Shown here: positions 48,692 to 64,000 of the stretch, piece after piece | Layout: each line of letters begins with the position of its first letter | Numbering within the stretch: position 1 is the first letter of the stretch | NCBI RefSeq assembly: GCF_013177315.1 | Contig: NZ_CP053661.1 | Span: 4,588,001 to 4,652,000, forward strand | DNA: 64,000 bases | Source: Thermoleptolyngbya sichuanensis A183 | GTDB lineage: Bacteria > Cyanobacteriota > Cyanobacteriia > Elainellales > Elainellaceae | Direction: 5' to 3' | The notes under the pieces: model-generated | Databases searched by the model: none | What the model saw: only the letters and a program-made list of their open reading frames with translations | Told to the model about the DNA's origin: nothing | Translations under genes and position numbers: made by a program

Positions 48692-49069
48692 ATGCGACCC
48701 TACTCACTAGATCTTAGACAAAAAATTATTGATGTCTACATTGAAGGGAATACGTCGCAACGTCAAATCGCTCAACAATTTCGAGTTGCTTACAGTTTCG
48801 TGCGAAAGCTGATCAAACAATATCGGGAAACAGGTGAGATTGCCCCCAAACGCCGCACTGAGCAAACGCCAACCAAATTAAGTAATGAGCAACTAGAGAT
48901 CCTAAAAACGATTGCTGAATCAAATCATGACGCGACATTGGCAGAGTTGTGTGACTTGCTGGAACAAAGGGTCGGTGTTCGGATTGGCGTTTCGACGATG
49001 TTTCGTATGTTAGAGAAACTGAACTTAACCCTTAAAAAAAACGCTGTATCCCGACAAAAAGGAAACTGA
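48692..49069 (+). CDS. IS630 transposase, helix-turn-helix part (copy B)
   Basis: 125 residues, same as copy A except for NHDATLAEL. It ends past a run of eight A (49034-49041). A +1 slip at this run would give a continuous product reading LKKTLYPDKKETERVQIERV into the DDE frame. Confidence 0.92.
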   Translation: MRPYSLDLRQKIIDVYIEGNTSQRQIAQQFRVAYSFVRKLIKQYRETGEIAPKRRTEQTPTKLSNEQLEILKTIAESNHDATLAELCDLLEQRVGVRIGVSTMFRMLEKLNLTLKKNAVSRQKGN

Positions 49070-49073
49070 ACGG

Positions 49074-49646
49074 GTGCAAATCGAACGAGTCAAATTTTGG
49101 CAACTGGTTCGAGGATTCCTGGCTCAAGACTTAATCTTTATTGACGAATCAGGAGTGAACCTGGCTTTGACTCGACTCCGGGCACGTGCCCCGAAAGGAA
49201 AACGAGCCCATGGCAAGCGTCCCAGCAAACGAGGGAAACGGGTCTCGATTCTTGGTGCAATTAGCCTTAAAAAGGTAATTACCTATTCCAATCTCATCGG
49301 TTCAGTCGATGGACTTACCTTTGAAGCCTTCATTTCCCAGAGACTCGTTCCTAAGTTGTGGAAAGGGGCATGTGTCATCATGGATAACTGCTCGATTCAT
49401 CTTGGTGAAGAAGTTAGGAGGTTGATTGAGGATGCAGGTGCTAAACTGATGTTTCTACCGCCGTACTCGCCGGACTTTTCACCCATCGAGAATTGCTTTT
49501 CAAAGATTAAGAGTATTCTGCGCTCCCTTGGGGCACGGAGCTATCTTGATCTAGACAAAGCCATTGAGGAGTCCTTCTCCCAAGTGTCATTGAATGACCT
49601 ACAGAATTGGTTCTCCCATTGCTGTTACTATGCCTCGCCAGAATGA
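49074..49646 (+). CDS. IS630 transposase, DDE part (copy B)
   Basis: 190 residues, identical in translation to copy A, with the IDESG, MDNCSIH and SPIEN catalytic motifs. It is likely expressed by frameshift from the preceding frame, since its first codons have no ribosome binding site of their own. Confidence 0.93.
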   Translation: MQIERVKFWQLVRGFLAQDLIFIDESGVNLALTRLRARAPKGKRAHGKRPSKRGKRVSILGAISLKKVITYSNLIGSVDGLTFEAFISQRLVPKLWKGACVIMDNCSIHLGEEVRRLIEDAGAKLMFLPPYSPDFSPIENCFSKIKSILRSLGARSYLDLDKAIEESFSQVSLNDLQNWFSHCCYYASPE

Positions 49647-54799: not shown

Positions 54800-55654
54800 A
54801 TGACTGAGCCTGTATCCAAACCTGCATTCAAAAGAGTTAGCGCCATGAATCCACTGCGATCGCCAGCAATTTCACGCTCCCCAGTCCGCAGGCTTGCGCG
54901 ATCTCGGCGAGAAGTCCTTGGCTTTTTGGGCAGCGTTGCGGGTACGGCGCTGTTTGGGTGTTCCCGTCAGCCGGAGGGGTTGCCGCCCATTGCGTCTTCT
55001 GGCTCGGCGCAGGCGGAAGCCCTGCTCGATTGCATTGTGCGGCCTCAGCAAACGGCAGGGCCTTTCTTTGTCGATACGCAGCTCAATCGGGTTGATCTTC
55101 GCACTGACCCTGCCACAGGGCAGATCAGTGCGGGAGTGCCGTTGGGGTTGCTTTTTCAGGTCTTTCAGGTGGAAAGCTTTCAGCCGGAAGGCCCCCGCAG
55201 GTGTGTGCCGCTGCCCAATGCTGTGGTGGATGTTTGGCAGTGTGATGCAGCGGGCGTATATTCTGGCGTGCGCGATCGCCGGTCAGACACCACAGGTCAG
55301 GCCTTTCTACGGGGCTACCAGCGGACTGATCAAAACGGTGTGGCTGAGTTCCTGACTATCTATCCGGGTTGGTATCCTGGCAGAGCCGTTCATATTCACT
55401 TCAAGATTCGCACCGGGTCTCCCTCAGGGGCGATCGCCCCAAGCAGCTATGAGTTTACCTCCCAGCTTTACTTTGACGATGCCTTGACCGATCGAATTCA
55501 TCGCCAAACGCCTTACACAGCTAGGGGGCAGCGGGCCCAGCGGAATCATCAAGATGCGATCTTCCAGTTTGGCGGAGCGCAACTTCTGCTGCCTGTAGCG
55601 CAGACCGATTGGGGGTATTTCGGCAGATTTGGGATTGGATTAGAGATGGGCTAA
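54800..55654 (+). CDS. Exported intradiol ring-cleavage dioxygenase-like protein
   Basis: A 284-residue protein (ATG 54845 also possible) with a twin-arginine signal (RSRREVLGFLGSVAGTALFGC) whose last Cys could be a lipidation site. The mature part is an intradiol dioxygenase fold like protocatechuate 3,4-dioxygenase beta: the non-haem iron ligands are recognisable as Tyr in DAAGVYSGVRD, Tyr in YPGWYPGR and two His in RAVHIHFKI. The Tat signal would export it folded with iron. Substrate unknown; exported relatives act on aromatic compounds. Its stop lies in an 11-bp triplicated repeat. Confidence 0.87.
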   Translation: MTEPVSKPAFKRVSAMNPLRSPAISRSPVRRLARSRREVLGFLGSVAGTALFGCSRQPEGLPPIASSGSAQAEALLDCIVRPQQTAGPFFVDTQLNRVDLRTDPATGQISAGVPLGLLFQVFQVESFQPEGPRRCVPLPNAVVDVWQCDAAGVYSGVRDRRSDTTGQAFLRGYQRTDQNGVAEFLTIYPGWYPGRAVHIHFKIRTGSPSGAIAPSSYEFTSQLYFDDALTDRIHRQTPYTARGQRAQRNHQDAIFQFGGAQLLLPVAQTDWGYFGRFGIGLEMG

Positions 55655-55680
55655 ACCAGGGCTAAACCAGGGCTAAACTA
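55648..55680. repeat. Three 11-bp repeats spanning a stop codon
   Basis: GGGCTAAACCA occurs three times in tandem; the first unit contains the TAA stop (55652-55654) of the dioxygenase gene. Confidence 0.9.
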
Positions 55681-56566
55681 GGGCGGGTAGGGCGATCGCA
55701 TCTCTGCAATAGCTGGCTAGATGGGGCGATCGGTAGCCCTCCTGCGTCCACAGGATGGGGAAGAAGGATTCATCCAGGGTGCTGTCGTTAATCCGCTTGT
55801 AGCGACCGTAGATATAACCGGGGGGAACGTCGCTAAACCGTGCTTCAGAACTGATCGTGTGAATGCCCAGGCTGCGGCGCGGGGTGGTTTCACTCAGGTT
55901 TTTGCCAGAGCCGTGCCACAATAGCCCGTGATGGAAGGCGCAGCCCCCGGCGGGGATTGTCAGGGGCACAATGTCTGGCTCGCTGACTCCGGCTGCTTTT
56001 GCGGTTTCCAGCATGGCCCAGCGATAGTCTTTTTGGGGCGCATGAAACTCTCCCGCGACCTCAAGCAAGGGCCAGCGGTGGGACCCTCGCACATACTGAA
56101 GCGTGCCCGTTTCCAGGCTCACATCATCCAGCGCAATCCAGCAGGTGACCATTTCGGCGGGCGTGAGATAGTTGATGTAGGCTCCGTCCTGATGCAGGGC
56201 AATCTCCTTGCCGCCACCGGGTGGTTTATACCAGAGGCTATCCTGGCCGATGCGTGCCCCTGGCCAGCCCGCCAGTTGGGCGCTGATGCGGCCGACCTCT
56301 GCTGATAGAGCGACACTGGCAATCGTGCGATCGCTCTTCCACGCATTGCAAATTTCGCGGGTCACGTCTGGCAGGCTCAGCCCTGGTCGCCAGTGCCACT
56401 CGTCGGGGTAGACCGTCGTTTCAAATTCACCCCGAAACAGCGGCTCGATGCGATCGCGCAACTGCTGCACTAGCTCCAGATCAATAAACTGCTCCAGAAT
56501 GATAAACCCGTCTGTCTGAAACCGTTGAATGTCGTCCTCAGTAATCTGAAGGGGAGAATAAGCCAT
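55673..56566 (-). CDS. Phytanoyl-CoA dioxygenase (PhyH) family oxygenase
   Basis: From ATG 56566 the protein has 297 residues, an Fe(II)/2-oxoglutarate oxygenase. The iron site is HxD in IALHQDGAYINY with the distal His in GLLWHGSGKN; the 2-oxoglutarate-binding Arg is likely in TTPRRSLGIH. N-terminal FQTDGFIILEQFID is typical. An upstream extension to 56650 has no conserved look. The substrate cannot be read from sequence. It diverges from the methylated-amine cluster across 177 bp, so a shared function is possible. Confidence 0.88.
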   Translation of the reverse strand: MAYSPLQITEDDIQRFQTDGFIILEQFIDLELVQQLRDRIEPLFRGEFETTVYPDEWHWRPGLSLPDVTREICNAWKSDRTIASVALSAEVGRISAQLAGWPGARIGQDSLWYKPPGGGKEIALHQDGAYINYLTPAEMVTCWIALDDVSLETGTLQYVRGSHRWPLLEVAGEFHAPQKDYRWAMLETAKAAGVSEPDIVPLTIPAGGCAFHHGLLWHGSGKNLSETTPRRSLGIHTISSEARFSDVPPGYIYGRYKRINDSTLDESFFPILWTQEGYRSPHLASYCRDAIALPALV

Positions 56567-56743
56567 ACCGCAGAAATTCCGAGTGAAACGTGGGGGGAAT
56601 CGAGCCTGTTTGGACAACCAGCAGGACAGGCCCCCGGCATCGAGGGCCACTGTAGCGCTGCCTGCCCACTCTATTTGTGAAATTCGCTACGGTCTGCGGA
56701 GGCCAAGTTCCGCACAATGGGGTGCGTCTGTTTGTGCAGGATT

Positions 56744-57454
56744 ATGGAATTTTCAACGCTAACGCCGGGGCATCTCACGATCGCCGCCAGTGATTTTGAT
56801 GCTCGCCCAATGAGCTACCTTGAAAACGGCGAGCGGCTGGGGTATGAACCCGCTGTGGCGCGGGCGGTGTGTGCCAAGCTAGGGCTGGTGCCCGTGTGGC
56901 AAAATTTGCCCATGTCTGAGTTTTATTCCACACTGCACGCGGGCCAGTGTGATGTGGTGTGGTTTAACCAGGCGGTGACGGCAGAGCGCCTCAGCCACAG
57001 CCGCTTTACTCGGCCCTACGGGATCTATGACGAAGCGGTGATTGTGCGGGCCGATAGCCCCATCCACACGGCGACTGATCTTCAGGGCATGAAGCTGGGC
57101 GGGCTGGCGGATAGCACAAACCTGGCGCTGGGGGAGCAATTTGCCGACGTGACGCTGGTGCCGTTTCCGGGGAGCGATCAGGTGTTGCCGGAGATGCTGG
57201 CGGCGCTGCGGGCGGGCGAGATTGACGCGCTGGTGGATGATGAACTGGTGCTGATCACGGCGGCCGAGGCTGACCCGTCGCTGCGGCTGGCGTTTACGGT
57301 GGAAACGCGGCATCCGTTTGCGATCGCCCTCCGACCGACCGACGAAGACCTGCGACAGGCGCTGGATCAGACCCTAGAGGCGCTGCTCAGCGACGGCACG
57401 CTGGCGGCGCTGTGGGGCCAGTGGATTCCCTGGCGACCGTTTCCGTTTGTGTAG
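56744..57454 (+). CDS. Solute-binding protein family 3-like, no signal peptide
   Basis: From ATG 56744 the protein has 236 residues and the fold of amino-acid-type periplasmic binding proteins: GHLTIAASDFDARPMSYLEN, AVARAVCAKLGLVPVWQN, FTRPYGIYDEAVIVRAD, LRAGEIDALVDDELVL. No signal peptide or lipobox is visible in any upstream extension (an in-frame ATG at 56717 adds only CVCLCR-type residues). It may be a cytoplasmic ligand-binding protein. It leads the cluster tdm-unknown-tmm-glnT on the plus strand. Confidence 0.8.
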   Translation: MEFSTLTPGHLTIAASDFDARPMSYLENGERLGYEPAVARAVCAKLGLVPVWQNLPMSEFYSTLHAGQCDVVWFNQAVTAERLSHSRFTRPYGIYDEAVIVRADSPIHTATDLQGMKLGGLADSTNLALGEQFADVTLVPFPGSDQVLPEMLAALRAGEIDALVDDELVLITAAEADPSLRLAFTVETRHPFAIALRPTDEDLRQALDQTLEALLSDGTLAALWGQWIPWRPFPFV

Positions 57455-57491
57455 TGGAGGCTATGTAGTGGGGGCTGTGTAGTGGGGGCTA
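57450..57491. repeat. Three 14-bp repeats joining a stop and the next start
   Basis: TGTAGTGGRGGCTR occurs three times in tandem. Unit 1 contains the TAG stop of the binding-protein gene, and unit 3 ends with the A of the ATG of the next gene. Each unit supplies a GGAGG/GGGGG purine run. Confidence 0.92.
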
Positions 57492-59353
57492 TGATGCAGC
57501 AGGCTTGGGTGTCCGCGCCAGACCGCTATGATGACCTGCCCGCGCCCCTCGCGTCTGTTGTGGCAGAGTATCGGATTGCGCCCGGAACGGCGATCGCCTA
57601 TCCGGTCAAAGCGGGTCAATTCATCCAGATTATCGACGTAGACGGCAGCCAGTGTTCAGATTTTCTGGCTTTTGCGGGCGAGGGCTATGGGGAGGAACTG
57701 GACGGCACTGTGACGCGGACGCTGCTGGGCTTGGCGATGCCCCAGGTGGGTTTGTTCGGCCACTATTTTTCTCAGCAGATGCGGCCGCTGGTGGAAGTGG
57801 TGCAGGATACCTGCGGTCGCCATGATAGCTTCATGCTGGCCTGCACTCGCCGCTATTACGAAGATGCAGGCTATCCAGGGCATCCCAGTTGCAGCGAAAA
57901 TTTTAATCAGGTGCTTGGGCCCTACGGCATTGCGCCCCGGCTGGGCTGGCCTGCGATCAATTTCTTTTTTAATACTGAGGTGGATGGCACGGGCGCAATT
58001 ATCGCCGGAGAAGCCTGGTCGCGTCCGGGGGATTATGTGCTGCTGAGGGCGCACCAGGACTTGCTCTGTGCTAGTTCGGCCTGCCCCGACGACATCGACC
58101 CTGTAAATGGCTGGAACCCTACGCCCATTCACGTCCGCATCTATGGGGCAGAGTCTTCGTTCCCCAGGCTGAGGGGCCATCGCGCTGCGCCCAGTCTGCC
58201 GCTGCGCCTGACGCAAGACAGCGCCTTCACGCCGCGCATTCGAGACCTGACGCGGCATCTGGCAGACTACAACGGCTTTTGGGTTCCCCTCTCGTATCCT
58301 CAGCAGGGCAAGGCGGCGGACTATTGGGCCCTGCGGGAGCGGGTGGCGGTGATGGATCTGTCGGCGTTGCGAAAGTTTGACCTCACTGGAGCAGATGCGC
58401 TGGTGCTGCTCCAGTGGGTGTTTTCGCGCAATGTGGCTCAACTGGCGGTGGGGCAGTCGGCTTATGGCTGCTTGCTGAATCCCCACGGGGGGATCGTGGA
58501 CGATGGGATTGTGTTTCGCTTGGGGGAGGCGGCTTTTCGCTATGTGGGCAACTGCGACACCGATGCCCTGTGGCTGCACACCGTGGCCCAGGAGCGGGGC
58601 TTTGCGGTGGAGATTCTGCCGATGAGCGATCGCCTCCATAACTTATCCGTGCAGGGCCCCTGCTCCCGCGATTTGCTGACTCCGCTAATCCGGTTCGACC
58701 CCCAGTGGGGCCTCTCGACGCTGGCGGAACTGGGCTACTTCCGCTTTGCCACGGGGACGCTGGAGGGCATCCCGGTGTTTATTTCGCGCACGGGCTACAC
58801 GGGAGAGTTGGGCTATGAACTGTTTGTAGACCCCTGCGACGGACTGGCGCTGTGGGATGCCGTGATGCAGGCGGGCAAACCTTTTGGGCTGTTGCCGATG
58901 GGGATGGAAGCGATCGACTGCGCCCGCATCGAAGCTGGGCTGCTGGCGGCTGGTCGCGAGTTTAGTGATTTGATCTCGCCGTATCAGGCGGGCATTGGCT
59001 GGAGTGTGGCGCTGAAGAGTAAGGGCGATTTTATCGGTCGGGCAGCTCTGGAAGCGCTGCGATCGCGCCCCCCCTTCGTCGCGGTTGGGCTAACCCTGGC
59101 GGGGAATGAGGTCGCCTGTGGCGGGCAGGGGGTCTATGCCGCAGGGCAGCCCTGGCGGATTGGGCAGGTGACGAGCGGGACGTTTTCGCCTGTGCTGAAC
59201 CGCAGCATTGCGATCGCCCAGATTGCGCCGGACTATGCCCAACTGGGGACGGTCGTTGAGGTTGGCTTTTTGGATGGCATTAAGCGGCGCGATCGCGCAA
59301 CGGTCGGCCCCCTTTCCCCCTACGACCCCACCAAAAGCCGGGTCAAAGCATAG
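57491..59353 (+). CDS. tdm: DUF1989-GcvT fusion protein, TMAO demethylase (Tdm)-like
   Basis: From ATG 57491 the protein has 620 residues. Residues about 20-220 are a DUF1989 domain with conserved cysteines (VDGSQCSDFLAF, QDTCGRHDSF, HPSCSENF, LCASSACPDDI) likely to bind metal. Residues about 245-620 are a GcvT-type, tetrahydrofolate-binding domain (YWALRERVAVMDLSAL, RTGYTGELGYELFV, GMEAIDCARIEAGLL). This order is that of bacterial TMAO demethylase, which splits TMAO to dimethylamine and formaldehyde, the latter captured by THF. The tmm-like gene downstream supports the role. Other GcvT-type demethylases remain possible. GTG 57482 is an alternative start. Confidence 0.78.
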   Translation: MMQQAWVSAPDRYDDLPAPLASVVAEYRIAPGTAIAYPVKAGQFIQIIDVDGSQCSDFLAFAGEGYGEELDGTVTRTLLGLAMPQVGLFGHYFSQQMRPLVEVVQDTCGRHDSFMLACTRRYYEDAGYPGHPSCSENFNQVLGPYGIAPRLGWPAINFFFNTEVDGTGAIIAGEAWSRPGDYVLLRAHQDLLCASSACPDDIDPVNGWNPTPIHVRIYGAESSFPRLRGHRAAPSLPLRLTQDSAFTPRIRDLTRHLADYNGFWVPLSYPQQGKAADYWALRERVAVMDLSALRKFDLTGADALVLLQWVFSRNVAQLAVGQSAYGCLLNPHGGIVDDGIVFRLGEAAFRYVGNCDTDALWLHTVAQERGFAVEILPMSDRLHNLSVQGPCSRDLLTPLIRFDPQWGLSTLAELGYFRFATGTLEGIPVFISRTGYTGELGYELFVDPCDGLALWDAVMQAGKPFGLLPMGMEAIDCARIEAGLLAAGREFSDLISPYQAGIGWSVALKSKGDFIGRAALEALRSRPPFVAVGLTLAGNEVACGGQGVYAAGQPWRIGQVTSGTFSPVLNRSIAIAQIAPDYAQLGTVVEVGFLDGIKRRDRATVGPLSPYDPTKSRVKA

Positions 59354-59371
59354 ATAGCCAGCAGACTCCGA

Positions 59372-59457
59372 CTTTTGGTGTTCCGCAACGCTTGTATCTC
59401 TACCTCCGTCTCCACCTTTTGGCGTTCCGCAACACTTGTATCCCCATCTCCATCTAC
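59372..59457. repeat. Tandem duplication of about 43 bp before 59468
   Basis: Two adjacent units start CTTTTGGYGTTCCGCAAC and continue RCTTGTATCYCYA, with several differences. They lie between the tdm-like stop and the next gene. Confidence 0.82.
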
Positions 59458-59467
59458 GCTGCGTTCT

Positions 59468-59995
59468 ATGCCCCTCGCCCCCTCGACCGATCGCACGCTC
59501 TGGGACTTTGCTGGAATTGACGGGCTGCAAGTCGCCCGCCACCTGTTTGGTGAGTCCATTGCCCACATTAGCCCGTTCCAATCCCTGACCACGGCGCTGC
59601 AAGGCTATCCCTGCGCTGTGCTGCGGCTGTGTGAAAACAACTTTCGGGTTGCCTTGCCCCAGGCGTTGGCGCTGAATGAGCTGATTCGTCCGCTGCCCTG
59701 GCGGGTCTGGGTGGCGCGATCGCCCTACCTGACTGCACTCACGCTGCCTGTTGGGCCGGGCCTCTCCTGGCTCTATCGGCGGGCCACGACCAAGCCGCTG
59801 TATACGCTGCAACCGCTGCCGGGCGATCGCGCGGTTCCTGCCCGACTGGATGGCATTGCTGTTCTAATTTGGCATCACGAGTGGTTGGGGCAACCCCGGC
59901 TCGACCTCCACCTGGCCACCGCTGATGTGCCCCTGGTGCGGGCGCAGATGGCGGACGCGGGGATGGAGGAAGACCAGCGGGCGATCGCCCCTTAG
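59468..59995 (+). CDS. Hypothetical protein in the methylated-amine cluster
   Basis: From ATG 59468 the protein has 175 residues. I do not recognise a family. It is soluble and moderately hydrophobic, with LWDFAGIDGLQVARHLFGE, a central YPCAVLRLCENNFRVALP, and WRVWVARSPYLTALTLPVG. It might be a small subunit or folding partner, comparable in position to small subunits of sarcosine-oxidase-type complexes, but no sequence motif shows this. It lies between the tdm-like and tmm-like genes in the same direction. Confidence 0.62.
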   Translation: MPLAPSTDRTLWDFAGIDGLQVARHLFGESIAHISPFQSLTTALQGYPCAVLRLCENNFRVALPQALALNELIRPLPWRVWVARSPYLTALTLPVGPGLSWLYRRATTKPLYTLQPLPGDRAVPARLDGIAVLIWHHEWLGQPRLDLHLATADVPLVRAQMADAGMEEDQRAIAP

Positions 59996-60306
59996 AAGCG
60001 CCCTACAACGAAGCCCAGAACCCTGACCCAACGAAGCCCAGAACTCTGACCAGAGGAAAACATTTCTGCTCACCCGATCCAAACCCCATCGAACCTGGTC
60101 AAAATTCACAAAGTCCCGCCCAGCAAGCACCCCAGACCGAAGGACTGCCCCCCTCTGCTCCTGCCGACGGCATTCAGTATCCGCTTTAGCAAAATCAGCT
60201 TGTCGGAACAAGCTATAAACCCCAGTATTTGGAGCGGGCGATCGCTCTAGGCTCAGAGCGTTAATCTCAGCTCCAAACTGTCGGGCAAAAGAGGTGAAAC
60301 CAAACG
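59996..60306. other. Spacer before the tmm-like gene with a 23-bp duplication
   Basis: AACGAAGCCCAGAAC-type units occur twice (about 60008-60053). No gene is seen. The leader before ATG 60307 has an AAAGAGGTGAAA site. Confidence 0.5.
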
Positions 60307-61641
60307 ATGACTCCTCGCGTGGCAATCATTGGGGCGGGCCCTTGCGGACTCTCTCAGCTTCAAGCCTTCGAGCAGGCGCGGCTGAAGGGGGCCGACATTC
60401 CAGAAATCGTCTGCTTTGAAAAGCAGGCCGACTGGGGCGGGCTGTGGAACTATACCTGGCGCACTGGGCTGGACGAGTATGGCGAACCCGTCCACGGCAG
60501 CATGTATCGCTACCTCTGGTCGAATGGCCCCAAGGAATGCCTGGAGTTTGCGGACTACACCTTTGACGAACACTTCCAGCGCCCAATTCCCTCGTTTCCG
60601 CCGCGCGAAGTGCTGTACGACTACATCACCGGGCGGGCTAAGAAGAATCATCTCCGGCGCTACATCCGGTTCAGTACGGTTGTGCGGCAGGTGGAGTTTA
60701 CCGAAGGACAGTTTCGCGTCCGCGTCAAAGACTTGGTGGCTGACCAGGAGCGCGTTGAAACCTTTGACTTTGTGGTGGTTGCAACGGGGCACTTTTCAAT
60801 TCCCAACCTGCCCAAGTTCGAGGGGATTGAGCAGTTTCCCGGCCGCGTTCTGCATAGCCACGACTTTCGGGAAGCCCGCGAATTTGCAGGGAAGGATTTG
60901 CTGGTGGTAGGCAGCAGCTATTCGGCCGAGGACATTGCGCTGCAAACCTATAAGTACGGCGCGAAATCGGTCACCATCAGCTATCGCACTGCGCCAATGG
61001 GGTTCAAGTGGCCGGAGGGCATTGAAGAAGTGCCGCTGCTGACCAAGCTGGAGGGCAAAGTGGCGCATTTCCAGGACGGCAGCAGCAAAAAGGTGGATGC
61101 TATCGTATTCTGCGTGGGCTACCAGCACAACTTTCCGTTTGTGGAAGACAGTCTGCGGCTCAAAACCAAGAACCGACTCTATCCCGGCTCCCTCTACAAG
61201 GGCATTTTTTGGATGTCCAATCCCAAGCTGATGTATTTGGGAATGCAGGATCAGTTTTATACCTTCAGCATGTTTGATGTGCAAGCATGGTATGCGCGGG
61301 ATGTGATGCTGGGGCGCATTGCTTTGCCGTCTTATGAGGAGATGGCTGCCGACATTGCCCACTGGCAGGCGCGGGAAGAGAGTCTGGCCAATCCCTTTGA
61401 GCAGATTGACTTTCAGAAGGATTACATTGTCGATCTGGCGGATCAGGTGGACTATCCTTCCTGTGATTGGGAACTGACGACGGAGCTATTTAAGGTTTGG
61501 GAACACGATAAGGAACAGAGCATTTTGGGCTATCGAGATAAGGTGTTTCGATCTCCCTGCACGGGGACGGAAGCAACGGTACACCATACCCCGTGGATTG
61601 AGGCGATGGATGATTCGCTGGCTAGCTTCTTAGGGAACTAG
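60307..61641 (+). CDS. tmm: Flavin monooxygenase, trimethylamine monooxygenase (Tmm)-like
   Basis: A 444-residue flavin-containing monooxygenase. The FAD motif is VAIIGAGPCGLSQLQAF; the NADPH motif is LLVVGSSYSAEDIALQ; the FMO identity motif is FPGRVLHSHDF. The stretch from FEKQADWGGLWNYTWRTGLD to CLEFADYTFDEHF, and the late HHTPWIEAMDDSL, are near-identical to bacterial Tmm as I recall it. Tmm oxidises trimethylamine (and related amines) to the N-oxide. The length fits Tmm. Its upstream neighbour is Tdm-like, making TMA to TMAO to DMA plausible. Substrate specificity needs an enzyme test. Confidence 0.85.
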   Translation: MTPRVAIIGAGPCGLSQLQAFEQARLKGADIPEIVCFEKQADWGGLWNYTWRTGLDEYGEPVHGSMYRYLWSNGPKECLEFADYTFDEHFQRPIPSFPPREVLYDYITGRAKKNHLRRYIRFSTVVRQVEFTEGQFRVRVKDLVADQERVETFDFVVVATGHFSIPNLPKFEGIEQFPGRVLHSHDFREAREFAGKDLLVVGSSYSAEDIALQTYKYGAKSVTISYRTAPMGFKWPEGIEEVPLLTKLEGKVAHFQDGSSKKVDAIVFCVGYQHNFPFVEDSLRLKTKNRLYPGSLYKGIFWMSNPKLMYLGMQDQFYTFSMFDVQAWYARDVMLGRIALPSYEEMAADIAHWQAREESLANPFEQIDFQKDYIVDLADQVDYPSCDWELTTELFKVWEHDKEQSILGYRDKVFRSPCTGTEATVHHTPWIEAMDDSLASFLGN

Positions 61642-61665
61642 TTGGGGAACTAGTTAGGGAACTAG
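61630..61665. repeat. Three 12-bp repeats spanning the tmm stop codon
   Basis: TTRGGGAACTAG occurs three times in tandem (3 x 12 bp). The first unit contains the TAG stop (61639-61641), and each later unit carries a further TAG. Confidence 0.92.
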
Positions 61666-61730
61666 CGTCCCGGTTCCTGATGCTTCGCTGCTTGTGTCGA
61701 ACTGACTTGAGACCTACCAGAACTGACCTG

Positions 61731-61761
61731 GATTTTGCACTAAGATTTTGCACTAAGGAGG
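61731..61761 (+). promoter_or_regulatory. Duplicated leader and strong ribosome binding site for glnT
   Basis: GATTTTGCACTAA occurs twice in a row; the second copy leads into AAGGAGG, an excellent Shine-Dalgarno 7 bp before the GTG start at 61769. Confidence 0.75.
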
Positions 61762-61768
61762 TTGACCC

Positions 61769-63271
61769 GTGACTGCTCTCGTTCCCAAGCCAGAAACCCT
61801 GACCCACCTAGAAGCCTACGTCGCTCAGCCGGGGCGTGCAGACCTGGTGGCCCAAGTTCGCGCCAAGATTGATGAACTGGGTATCCAGTACATCTATTAC
61901 CAGTTTGTGTCGGTGACGGGGCGGATTACGGGTAAGGGGGTTCCTGCGGCCCACTGGGAAAGCGTTGCAGAACGCGGCATCCAGCTTGTGTATGGGGCGA
62001 TGGCCAATCTGTTTCTCGACCGCTACGGCAACTATATTGGCTACGGGCCCGAAGCGTCGGAACTGGTGGCGATTCCTGACCCGGATACCTTTTGCCAGTT
62101 ACCGTGGGACAAGCGGGTGGCTCGTGTCTTTTGTACGTGCTTCCGCAACCGCGAGGAGCCGGAAGCGCCCGGATCTTATCTGACGGCTGACTGTCGCGGC
62201 AATTTGCGCCGTATCCATGCCCAGTTTCAGGCGGATCATAACGGGCTGCACCTGCGTCATGGCACAGAGCCGGAGATGATGTGGCTGAAGAAGGGGCCAG
62301 ATGGCAAGCCGGATGGCGGAGTGACGAAGCCCAACTGCTACCATATCCACCAGTTTGAGGAATTGCGGCCGGTGGTGCTGCGGGTGATTGAGTATGCGAA
62401 TGCGATGGGGCTGGATATGATTCAGGGCGATCATGAGGATGCGCCGGGGCAGTTGGAGCTGAATTTTATGTTTGATGAGGCGCTGCGGACGTGCGATCGC
62501 CTCACGACCTATCGCCAGATCTGCGCCCAAGTGGCCCGCGAATTCAATCTGATTGCCTGCTTTATGTCGAAGCCGTTTATGGGGCTATCGGCCAACGGCT
62601 GCCACCACAACCTGTCACTATGGTATGGCGGACAGGATGAGGTCAACGCCCTGGGGCTGGATTCGCTGCCTGGAATGCCTGGTACGTTTAGCTATCGCAA
62701 GGGCGGCGAAAACACCTTCCTGCCCGACCCCAGCCTCAGCAAGACCAAGCCTGGCCCGATCGGGCTACAGTCGATTGGCGGCGTGATTGAGCATTTGGGG
62801 GCGTTGACGGCGATTGGCTGCTCTACGGTCAACTCCTATCGCCGCCTGTGGGATAAGGGACTGTGGGCCCCGGTCTATGCGGATTGGGGCTTTCAGAATC
62901 GTACCTGCGGGCTGCGAGTCTCGGCACCGGGTCGGTTTGAGTATCGCGCGGTGGATTCGATGGTCAACCCGTATTTGATGGCGGCTGCTCTGCTGAAGGC
63001 GTTTGATGATGGGATTCGGCGCAACCTCGATCCGGGTGAGCCGGAAAGCCGAAACCTCTATGAAGCGATGGAGGCTGGAAAGCAGGTGAAGAAGCTGCCG
63101 ATGTCGCTGGGGGAGGCGCTGGTACGACTGGATGAGGATGAGGTGATTCGGTCTGCGCTGCCGGGTGAGATGTACAAACTCTACGCCTGGTACAAGCGAG
63201 ATGAATGGGAGAAGTTTCTGGCGACGACCTCAGACTGGGATGTGGAGATGTATCTGGATTGCTTGCCGTAG
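61769..63271 (+). CDS. Glutamine-synthetase homologue (GlnT/GmaS class)
   Basis: A 500-residue protein of the glutamine synthetase superfamily, beginning at GTG 61769 behind AAGGAGG. The metal/ATP core is clear (GDHEDAPGQLELNFMFDE and PFMGLSANGCHHNLSLWYGG), and later NPYLMAAALLKAFDDG. It groups by eye with GlnT/gamma-glutamylmethylamide synthetase (GmaS) rather than GlnA: the motif is HEDAPGQLE and lacks the usual adenylylation loop. GmaS ligates methylamine to glutamate, which would fit the neighbouring tmm and tdm genes. Ordinary or polyamine-type gamma-glutamylation cannot be excluded. Confidence 0.83.
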   Translation: MTALVPKPETLTHLEAYVAQPGRADLVAQVRAKIDELGIQYIYYQFVSVTGRITGKGVPAAHWESVAERGIQLVYGAMANLFLDRYGNYIGYGPEASELVAIPDPDTFCQLPWDKRVARVFCTCFRNREEPEAPGSYLTADCRGNLRRIHAQFQADHNGLHLRHGTEPEMMWLKKGPDGKPDGGVTKPNCYHIHQFEELRPVVLRVIEYANAMGLDMIQGDHEDAPGQLELNFMFDEALRTCDRLTTYRQICAQVAREFNLIACFMSKPFMGLSANGCHHNLSLWYGGQDEVNALGLDSLPGMPGTFSYRKGGENTFLPDPSLSKTKPGPIGLQSIGGVIEHLGALTAIGCSTVNSYRRLWDKGLWAPVYADWGFQNRTCGLRVSAPGRFEYRAVDSMVNPYLMAAALLKAFDDGIRRNLDPGEPESRNLYEAMEAGKQVKKLPMSLGEALVRLDEDEVIRSALPGEMYKLYAWYKRDEWEKFLATTSDWDVEMYLDCLP

Positions 63272-63358
63272 GGTGTTTGTGAACCGTTTGGAACTGCCGA
63301 CAGGGTGACTGGGTTTGAGGGTGTGTATCTGGATTGCTTGCCGTAGGGTGTTTGTGAA
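63248..63358. repeat. Duplicated 3' end of the glnT-like gene
   Basis: A 35-bp stretch beginning TGTATCTGGATTGCTTGCCG and including the TAG stop occurs at 63248-63282 and again at 63324-63358, 76 bp apart. After it, a run of TTTACTTGAAGTAA palindromic units follows (about 63371-63415). Confidence 0.88.
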
Positions 63359-63387
63359 TCCTTTGAAGATTAGTTACTTGAGGTACT

Positions 63388-64000
63388 TTACTTGAAGTAA
63401 TTTACTTGAAGTAAATAAGCAAGTTTAGCCCCGGAATGGTGCGCGAGAGTGTCCACAGCAACAGGCCGGTGTAGATTCAGTCCAAAGGCCCACTGATACC
63501 AGACCAGGGTGGTGATTAGCCCCGGCAGATGCTCGTCGCGCAGGCGGATGTCGTTGAACCCGAAGCGCAGCAGGTTGTTGGCGCTGAGGTCGAGATAGTT
63601 GAGCCAGTTCCAGCGGCGATCCCACAGTAGCGGTGCATAACGTTCCCGAAACATGGGGTAGCGGGGAATGGTGGGCAAGCGTCCGATGAGAATCCGCAAC
63701 TGGCGCAGCGTGCCTTCTTCGACGAAGTAGCTCACGTCCATTTTGGGATGGAACCGCCCGCCGCGATAGAGCAAAAACAGCAGGATCGCCGGGACGGGAA
63801 TGATGACTGTGCCCAGACAGGCGAGGGTGAGCCAGGGTGATTCTGCGAGCCGAAAGACGATGGATAGTCCGACGGTGGCCAGTAGCCCGGTGCTGCTAAG
63901 CATCCACACGGCTTCGGTGGGGGTGGGCAAGATGGGCTGGGGATGGAGCCGCCGCACGCGGTCTACTAGCCAGAATACGAGCGCAAAGTAGGCGACGGCA
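63388..64000 (-). CDS. Membrane protein, hypothetical, 5' end outside the window
   Basis: The frame stays open on the minus strand to the window edge. In addition to the part from GTG 63957 it reads VAYFALVFWLVDRVRRLHPQ, so the real start is outside. Two or three membrane helices follow (SSTGLLATVGLSIVFRLAE; LACLGTVIIPVPAILLFLLY), then a soluble C-terminus with YFVEEGTLRQLRILIGRLP and WLNYLDLSANNLLRFGFND. I recognise no family; it resembles conserved cyanobacterial membrane proteins. Confidence 0.75.
   Translation of the reverse strand, partial: AVAYFALVFWLVDRVRRLHPQPILPTPTEAVWMLSSTGLLATVGLSIVFRLAESPWLTLACLGTVIIPVPAILLFLLYRGGRFHPKMDVSYFVEEGTLRQLRILIGRLPTIPRYPMFRERYAPLLWDRRWNWLNYLDLSANNLLRFGFNDIRLRDEHLPGLITTLVWYQWAFGLNLHRPVAVDTLAHHSGAKLAYLLQVNYFK

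What the first reader, a model, noticed from the sequence alone, without database searches (positions are those of the whole stretch)
56744..63271. Candidate trimethylamine oxidation/demethylation cluster in a cyanobacterium
Four neighbouring plus-strand genes fit consecutive steps: Tmm-like FMO (TMA to TMAO), DUF1989-GcvT protein with the domain order of TMAO demethylase (TMAO to DMA plus one-carbon), a GlnT/GmaS-like synthetase (methylamine to gamma-glutamylmethylamide) and a binding-protein-like leader gene. The pathway is known from marine methylotrophs, Roseobacter and SAR11; a cyanobacterial version with a one-carbon link to folate could supply N and C1 units. Dimethylamine monooxygenase and N-methylglutamate genes are not in the window.
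Basis: partly seen in the sequence, partly recalled or inferred. Interest (0 to 1): 0.78.

Follow-up and report, generated by a model that had tools for sequence, protein, structure and literature searches.

The report
Cyanobacterial trimethylamine-breakdown gene cluster
A photosynthetic bacterium carries genes that look able to oxidise trimethylamine and strip its methyl groups, and its relatives seem to do the same job with different enzymes in some steps, which points to two candidate enzymes to test for this pathway.

Summary
60307-61641 passes NCBI's curated cut-off for trimethylamine monooxygenase (Tmm). 57482-59353 is a DUF1989-GcvT protein closest to TMAO demethylase (Tdm). The synthetase (61769-63271) is not the characterised GmaS but a separate long subfamily; a GmaS-like gene lies elsewhere in the genome.

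New: (1) In 18 cyanobacterial genomes with Tdm, Tdm lacks the N-terminal domain that a 2025 paper calls ubiquitous, but keeps the metal ligands. (2) A small unannotated gene (59468-59995) has a predicted GcvT fold. (3) In these 18 genomes Tmm (5) and an acyl-CoA-dehydrogenase-fold flavoprotein with an altered catalytic motif (13) are exactly complementary; in Labrys that protein plus a flavin reductase stands with tdm and dmm-type genes where others have Tmm. (4) A 2-oxoglutarate dioxygenase (55673-56650) has a close homologue in 18 of 18 Tdm genomes and 1 of 22 others, and was never seen in one Tdm locus with the heme-type dimethylamine demethylase.

Best reading: TMA to TMAO to dimethylamine plus C1 (well supported by sequence). 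That the dioxygenase removes the next methyl group, and that the flavoprotein replaces Tmm, is inferred. No activity has been shown.

The parts
60307..61641 (+). Tmm: trimethylamine monooxygenase (FMO), 444 aa
   Evidence: NF058570 798 bits > cut-off 675; PDB 6hns, 8b2d, 2xve, 6kbw at E <= 1e-189
57482..59353 (+). Tdm-like DUF1989-GcvT protein, 623 aa, without the N-terminal DUF1989-like domain; metal-site residues D60, C121, H134, C137, C201, D204 kept (start could also be ATG at 57491 or 57494)
   Evidence: NF053776 aligned 148-763 of 763, 826 bits; PDB 9q59 E 1.5e-180; residue counts; M. silvestris numbering from passages of PMC12560246
59468..59995 (+). small protein, 175 aa, predicted GcvT (T-protein) fold, SoxG-like in size; homologue in 15 of 17 other cyanobacterial Tdm loci
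   Evidence: no family match; AF2 pLDDT 89.6; 1wos Z 13.8, 161 residues, rmsd 2.5; 2gag_C TM 0.62/0.57; counts
55673..56650 (-). PhyH-family Fe(II)/2-oxoglutarate dioxygenase, candidate dimethylamine demethylase (inferred); likely start near residue 29
   Evidence: PF05721 1.8e-29; H153/D155 16 of 16, H246 14 of 16 aligned rows; linked to Tdm
56717..57454 (+). SBP_bac_3-like binding protein without a clear signal peptide, probably cytoplasmic (ATG at 56717 or 56744)
   Evidence: PF00497 8.7e-24; N-termini of homologues
61769..63271 (+). long glutamine-synthetase-family ligase (500 aa), not the characterised GmaS subfamily
   Evidence: 75% identity to a Geminicoccaceae GS that stands beside MgsABC-like genes
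57448..57493 (.). short tandem repeat over the SBP stop codon (period 14)
61619..61665 (.). short tandem repeat over the Tmm stop codon (period 12)

Best explanation
A cyanobacterial methylated-amine salvage module. Tmm oxidises trimethylamine (TMA) with NADPH and O2 to TMAO. The short Tdm removes one methyl group from TMAO at a Zn/Fe site in its DUF1989 domain and gives dimethylamine (DMA) plus formaldehyde, which its GcvT domain may pass to tetrahydrofolate; the small GcvT-fold protein is probably a partner subunit. These two steps are inferred from family membership and conserved ligands. I further infer, with less certainty, that the PhyH-type 2-oxoglutarate dioxygenase hydroxylates an N-methyl group of DMA to give methylamine plus formaldehyde, and that methylamine is used by a copper amine oxidase or a GmaS-like ligase encoded elsewhere in the genome, so that the cell gains nitrogen and C1 units.
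For: Tmm over the curated equivalog cut-off. Tdm: best structure hit by far; metal-site positions conserved, five in 18 of 18 cyanobacterial rows, the sixth D in 17 and E in 1, and all six in 74 of 74 others. In 80 Tdm loci PhyH is seen in 9 and the heme-type Dmm protein (HODM) in 20, never both. An Amt-type transporter is in 12 of 17 other cyanobacterial Tdm loci, though not in the window. The genome encodes a copper amine oxidase and a GmaS-like protein (7cql 641 bits).
Against: No activity, expression or growth data. The Tdm falls below NCBI's cut-off because its N-terminal domain is missing, and the separated halves of M. silvestris Tdm (N-terminal part, GcvT part) were inactive (passages of PMC12560246); removal of only the first domain was not reported there. 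No MgsABC and no APC-type TMAO permease was seen in 17 other cyanobacterial Tdm loci, many of them cut short; TmoXVW was not searched. A HODM protein exists elsewhere in this genome, fused to a GNAT domain and not linked to Tdm (8 of 18 Tdm+ against 9 of 22 Tdm-). Among the 18 PhyH matches two (G400, G422) are in broken pieces and three (G396, G398, G409) have a stop codon inside the matched stretch though their open frames are 303-306 aa. The PhyH step rests on linkage alone.
Confidence: 0.72

Rival explanations
1. PhyH acts upstream: it makes TMA (or another tertiary amine) from a larger compound such as a betaine or choline derivative, and DMA is the end product or is handled by enzymes elsewhere (HODM, amine oxidase).
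For: PhyH enzymes hydroxylate many substrates (recalled); it is divergently transcribed from the cluster in the window; a HODM gene is present in this genome.
Against: PhyH and HODM were never seen together in 80 Tdm loci, as expected if they share a step; HODM is not linked to Tdm in cyanobacteria.
Confidence: 0.25
2. The module oxidises another soft nucleophile: Tmm enzymes also oxidise dimethyl sulfide, so the cluster could serve DMS or another amine rather than TMA.
For: Tmm is reported to turn DMS into DMSO (passage in PMC13352529).
Against: Tmm stands with a Tdm homologue whose metal site is conserved; DMSO would not need Tdm.
Confidence: 0.12
3. The Tdm-like protein without its N-terminal domain has another function, for example a DUF1989 enzyme of guanidine or urea metabolism or another folate-dependent demethylase.
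For: Below the Tdm equivalog cut-off (826 against 1100); N-terminal domain missing in all 18 cyanobacterial rows.
Against: DUF1989-GcvT order; Tdm hit far better than the next kind of structure; the urea-associated DUF1989 models score only 96 and 68 bits; every Tdm+ cyanobacterium examined has either Tmm or the flavoprotein.
Confidence: 0.1

Closest known systems
tmm-tdm-dmmDABC methylated-amine pathway of Ruegeria pomeroyi and Methylocella silvestris
   Same: Tmm and a DUF1989-GcvT Tdm; C1 released towards folate
   Different: No HODM or MgsABC-like gene was seen in 17 other cyanobacterial Tdm loci; a PhyH dioxygenase, a small GcvT-fold protein, an SBP without signal peptide and a different GS subfamily are present instead; Tdm lacks its N-terminal domain. 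TmoXVW was not searched
SAR11 methylated-amine genes
   Same: Tmm and Tdm without dmmDABC (passages of PMC5520151)
   Different: SAR11 has TmoX and GmaS (same passages); I did not look for PhyH genes in SAR11
Trimethylamine N-oxide demethylase (NF053776; PDB 9q59)
   Same: DUF1989 + GcvT domains, metal-site positions
   Different: First 147 model positions absent
Group D flavin monooxygenases (such as DszC; nitrososynthase DnmZ by fold), for the flavoprotein of the relatives
   Same: Acyl-CoA dehydrogenase fold; a flavin reductase gene beside it or beside Tdm in Labrys and Actinomycetota
   Different: By sequence nearer to acyl-CoA dehydrogenases; substrate untested; no flavin reductase of that type in 17 cyanobacterial loci

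Membership tests
Trimethylamine monooxygenase (Tmm, NF058570) | score above the curated equivalog cut-off over the full length | tested here: met
   798 bits against 675, model positions 1-442 of 443
Trimethylamine monooxygenase (Tmm, NF058570) | TMA-dependent NADPH oxidation, TMAO product | not testable with these tools
   needs purified enzyme
TMAO demethylase (Tdm, NF053776) | score above the curated cut-off over the full model | tested here: not met
   826 bits against 1100; model positions 1-147 not aligned
TMAO demethylase (Tdm, NF053776) | DUF1989 then GcvT domain order | tested here: met
   DUF1989 31-195, GCV_T 253-507, GCV_T_C 535-615
TMAO demethylase (Tdm, NF053776) | Zn/Fe-site residues (D198, C263, H276, C279, C343, D346 of M. 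silvestris) | tested here: met
   D60, C121, H134, C137, C201, D204 in the window; the spacing C263-H276-C279-C343-D346 is kept exactly; mapped by spacing and by the 9q59 alignment, not by the M. silvestris sequence itself. A344 of the proposed Fe site is P202 here
TMAO demethylase (Tdm, NF053776) | N-terminal DUF1989-like domain, called ubiquitous in PMC12560246 | tested here: not met
   5-49 residues before the common start in 18 of 18 cyanobacterial rows; 112 or more in 72 of 74 others, the exceptions being L048 (contig edge) and L024 (39)
gamma-glutamylmethylamide synthetase (GmaS) | closest to the GmaS / type III GS subfamily | tested here: not met
   305 bits against 469.6; 7cql only 182 bits while the genome's other GS scores 641
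ABC importer binding protein | N-terminal signal peptide or lipobox | tested here: inconclusive
   no clear signal peptide by simple hydropathy in the window protein or in most homologues; L138's long open frame has a hydrophobic start, its true start unknown. No signal-peptide program was run
DmmDABC dimethylamine monooxygenase | HODM_asu-like protein together with a DmmA-like reductase | tested here: inconclusive
   HODM-GNAT fusion at C1:618537-619976; no reductase recognised by eye among the neighbouring open frames; PF22290 not searched in the genome
Fe(II)/2-oxoglutarate dioxygenase (PhyH) | HxD...H metal triad | tested here: met
   H153, D155 in 16 of 16 rows, H246 in 14 of 16, with A in the other two

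The most novel reading that the evidence does not exclude
The pathway is modular with two interchangeable steps. An acyl-CoA-dehydrogenase-fold flavoprotein that lost its catalytic Glu, working with a flavin reductase, is a second, unrelated TMA monooxygenase; and a PhyH dioxygenase is a second, unrelated DMA demethylase. All four combinations (Tmm+HODM, flavoprotein+HODM, flavoprotein+PhyH, Tmm+PhyH) are seen, and the window is of the Tmm+PhyH type, with a short Tdm assisted by a SoxG-like subunit.
Probability: 0.42. Interest if true: 0.85.

Novelty: new variant of a known kind. Interest (0 to 1): 0.68.

Why it matters
TMA oxidation is best known from heterotrophic bacteria such as Roseobacter and SAR11. 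A phototroph that takes nitrogen and C1 units from TMA would change how methylated amines are budgeted in mats, freshwater and saline waters. Genome and metagenome surveys that count only tmm and dmm would miss the predicted alternatives. Organisms with tmm and tdm but no dmm are an open puzzle (passages of PMC5520151); the PhyH gene is a concrete, cheap-to-test candidate for such a missing DMA step, and the flavoprotein is one for TMA oxidation in organisms without Tmm.

Tried and rejected
HODM as the DMA enzyme of these cyanobacteria: present in this genome, but not linked to Tdm (8 of 18 against 9 of 22, one of the nine a partial match with stops). GmaS for the window's synthetase: rejected by score and identity. 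The small gene as the detached N-terminal domain of Tdm: its predicted fold is GcvT-like, whereas the paper calls the N-terminal domain DUF1989-like, so rejected. The flavoprotein as an ordinary acyl-CoA dehydrogenase: in 19 of 19 rows the position of the canonical Y-E-G-T reads M-G-P-T (that this Glu is the catalytic base is recalled). Fold search with the flavoprotein model: pLDDT 62, and hits mix dehydrogenases and monooxygenases (top hit 5z8t, a flavin-containing monooxygenase; DnmZ at rank 40), so not used. Copper amine oxidase as a fixed member: seen in 3 of 17 cyanobacterial loci (L004-L006); in this genome it lies elsewhere.

Literature, seen as search listings unless said otherwise: Tmm + cyanobacteria + tmm, 11 papers, none on cyanobacterial Tmm by title or start of abstract; Tdm + DUF1989, none; TMAO + tdm + demethylase, 13; methylated amine + cyanobacteria + trimethylamine, 23, of which 20 listed; Tdm + tetrahydrofolate + formaldehyde, 4; Tmm + acyl-CoA dehydrogenase, 2; dimethylamine + phytanoyl-CoA dioxygenase, none; cyanobacteria + TMAO + nitrogen source + genome + demethylase, 6; group D monooxygenase terms, 6; TMAO + two-component + flavin reductase + demethylase, 1. 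Passages read: PMC12560246, PMC5520151, PMC13352529; abstract and section list: PMC13390433. The library is open-access only, so this is no proof that nothing is in print.

Full report
What is there. Two more belong to the unit: a 175-aa gene at 59468-59995 and a divergent PhyH-family dioxygenase at 55673-56650. The genome is a single 5,525,100-base contig; I did not establish its name. GCGATCGC palindromes in the sequence (recalled as a cyanobacterial mark, HIP1) and the named kin of its Tdm make it a cyanobacterium.

Tmm. The FMO scores 798 bits against the curated Tmm cut-off of 675. Its best solved relatives are bacterial FMO/Tmm structures; Baeyer-Villiger enzymes come far behind. In a tree of 43 Tmm rows (no other FMO class included) the six cyanobacterial ones sit together on a weak branch (31), near a Geminicoccaceae row. 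In a sample of 386 genomes of the phylum 3 pass the cut-off, this one included.

Tdm. The 623-aa protein matches Tdm 9q59 at 1.5e-180; the best structure of another kind is at 5.7e-46. It lacks model positions 1-147. A 2025 paper (PMC12560246, passages read) describes an N-terminal DUF1989-like third domain as ubiquitous in Tdm homologs. All 18 cyanobacterial rows lack it (5-49 residues before the common start); 72 of 74 other rows have 112 or more residues there; the two exceptions are L048, which starts at a contig edge, and L024. The metal positions D60, C121, H134, C137 and C201 are invariant in 18 of 18, D204 is D in 17 and E in 1, and all six are invariant in the 74 others. In a tree of 42 Tdm rows the 18 cyanobacterial ones are one side of a branch (SH-aLRT 100). 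Tdm is rare in the phylum sample (2 of 386, this one included) but common near this genome (12 of 40 relatives including itself; 10 of 24 others of its genus and family; the one same-genus genome, 85% complete, has none).

The small gene. No family reaches significance. [quoted passage not shown] A homologue is in 15 of 17 other cyanobacterial Tdm loci; of the two without, L007 ends inside Tdm and L004 has a partial match. A partner role for Tdm's own GcvT domain is my inference.

Conserved neighbourhood. Within 17 other cyanobacterial Tdm loci, many cut by contig ends, homologues are seen of the SBP in 11, Amt in 12, PhyH in 9, the long GS in 7, the flavoprotein in 11, Tmm in 2 and a copper amine oxidase in 3; HODM, MgsA/B/C, APC-type TMAO permease and flavin reductase in none (single-sequence phmmer with bit limits of my own). 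Some loci add a GntR-type regulator; one was tested.

Tmm and the flavoprotein. Tmm is found in 5 (G000, G119, G401, G419, G423) and the flavoprotein in 13 at E <= 1e-20: none has both, none has neither. G318 has Tmm but neither Tdm nor the flavoprotein. The flavoprotein is in 0 of 28 Tdm- relatives (that call had no positive control, but the same query rang in 13 of 19). If the two were spread independently, a perfect complement of 5 and 13 would have a chance of 1 in 8568, but kinship makes this too strong: on the Tdm tree the label changes at least 2 times within the cyanobacteria and 5 times over all labelled rows. In the 80 loci, Tmm is seen in 38, the flavoprotein in 10, both in 0, neither in 32; outside the cyanobacteria at most about 10 kb on each side was examined, never the whole genome. 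In Labrys (L012) the order is flavoprotein - flavin reductase - Tdm - GcvT - (one overlapping frame) - DmmA-like reductase - HODM, where Hyphomicrobium (L050) has DmmA-like reductase - HODM - GcvT - Tmm - Tdm. Seven loci titled as Actinomycetota or members of it also have a flavin-reductase homologue near Tdm (one, L048, tested by Pfam and NCBIfam). In 19 of 19 rows the Y-E-G-T of acyl-CoA dehydrogenases, whose Glu I recall as the catalytic base, reads M-G-P-T. Acyl-CoA dehydrogenase fold is that of group D flavin monooxygenases (PMC13352529, passages). Against this: by sequence the protein is nearer to dehydrogenases, the structure model is poor, and no such flavin reductase was seen in the cyanobacterial loci.

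PhyH and the DMA step. A PhyH homologue of over 60% identity (a line drawn after seeing the list) is in 18 of 18 Tdm+ genomes and 1 of 22 Tdm- genomes; four more Tdm- genomes have paralogs of 45-53%. Two of the 18 are in broken pieces and three have a stop inside the matched stretch. HODM, the heme-type DMA demethylase family, is not linked to Tdm in cyanobacteria (8 of 18 against 9 of 22). In the 80 loci PhyH is seen in 9 and HODM in 20, never both. Combinations seen: Tmm+HODM in 17 loci, flavoprotein+HODM in 3 (Labrys), flavoprotein+PhyH in 6 (L005, L006, L014, L015, L019, L065), Tmm+PhyH in L002, L117 and the window. This mix-and-match is what two shared steps with alternative enzymes would leave. 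It does not prove the substrates.

The synthetase. The long GS is 75% identical to a Geminicoccaceae protein (L008) and about 30% to the GmaS-like group. Outside the cyanobacteria it stands with an MgsA/B/C-like trio in L008, L013, L015, L055 and L065, and with MgsA/B in L034, where the locus ends; in L062 the weak MgsA/B matches lie far away, and in L014 the locus ends at the GS. The GmaS-like type stands with another MgsABC-like trio in L053 and L064 and beside an MgsC-like gene in L073 and L079. So it may do an equivalent job, but it is not a member of the characterised group. That 7cql is a methylamine ligase is recalled; 9qur bears that name in the tool.

Verdict. The GmaS claim is not. 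The larger result is comparative: a short Tdm, a probable extra subunit, and two candidate enzymes for steps that other organisms run with Tmm and Dmm. All activity is inferred.

Noticed in passing
window 57448-57493, 59366-59453, 60006-60051, 61619-61665, 61731-61757, 63249-63365, 63374-63414: Short tandem or near-tandem duplications (period 12-75) lie in each gap from the SBP to beyond the GS (none was found in the PhyH-SBP gap); at three genes (SBP, Tmm, GS) they include the stop-codon region.
   Followed up: partly
window 48692-49646, and L115 3835-4789: A transposase-like pair of frames (IS630-like by recognition only); the same pair occurs at a second place in the genome.
   Followed up: no
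window 54800-55654: Intradiol-dioxygenase-like protein (PF00775, 8.4e-9) with a twin-Arg-like N-terminus, next to the cluster; not seen among window frames shared with the relatives' loci.
   Followed up: no
L111 9034-10479: HODM protein fused to a GNAT acetyltransferase domain in this genome; in relatives the two parts match separate places.
   Followed up: partly
L118 10162-11505: G318 has a Tmm over the cut-off but no Tdm, flavoprotein or PhyH match at the limits used; its role there is unknown.
   Followed up: no
L131 1740-2162, L133 4995-5402, L134 4819-5238, L136 15574-15978, L140 8948-9391: A small membrane-like protein without NCBIfam match (one tested) lies next to the Amt gene in several clusters.
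   Followed up: no
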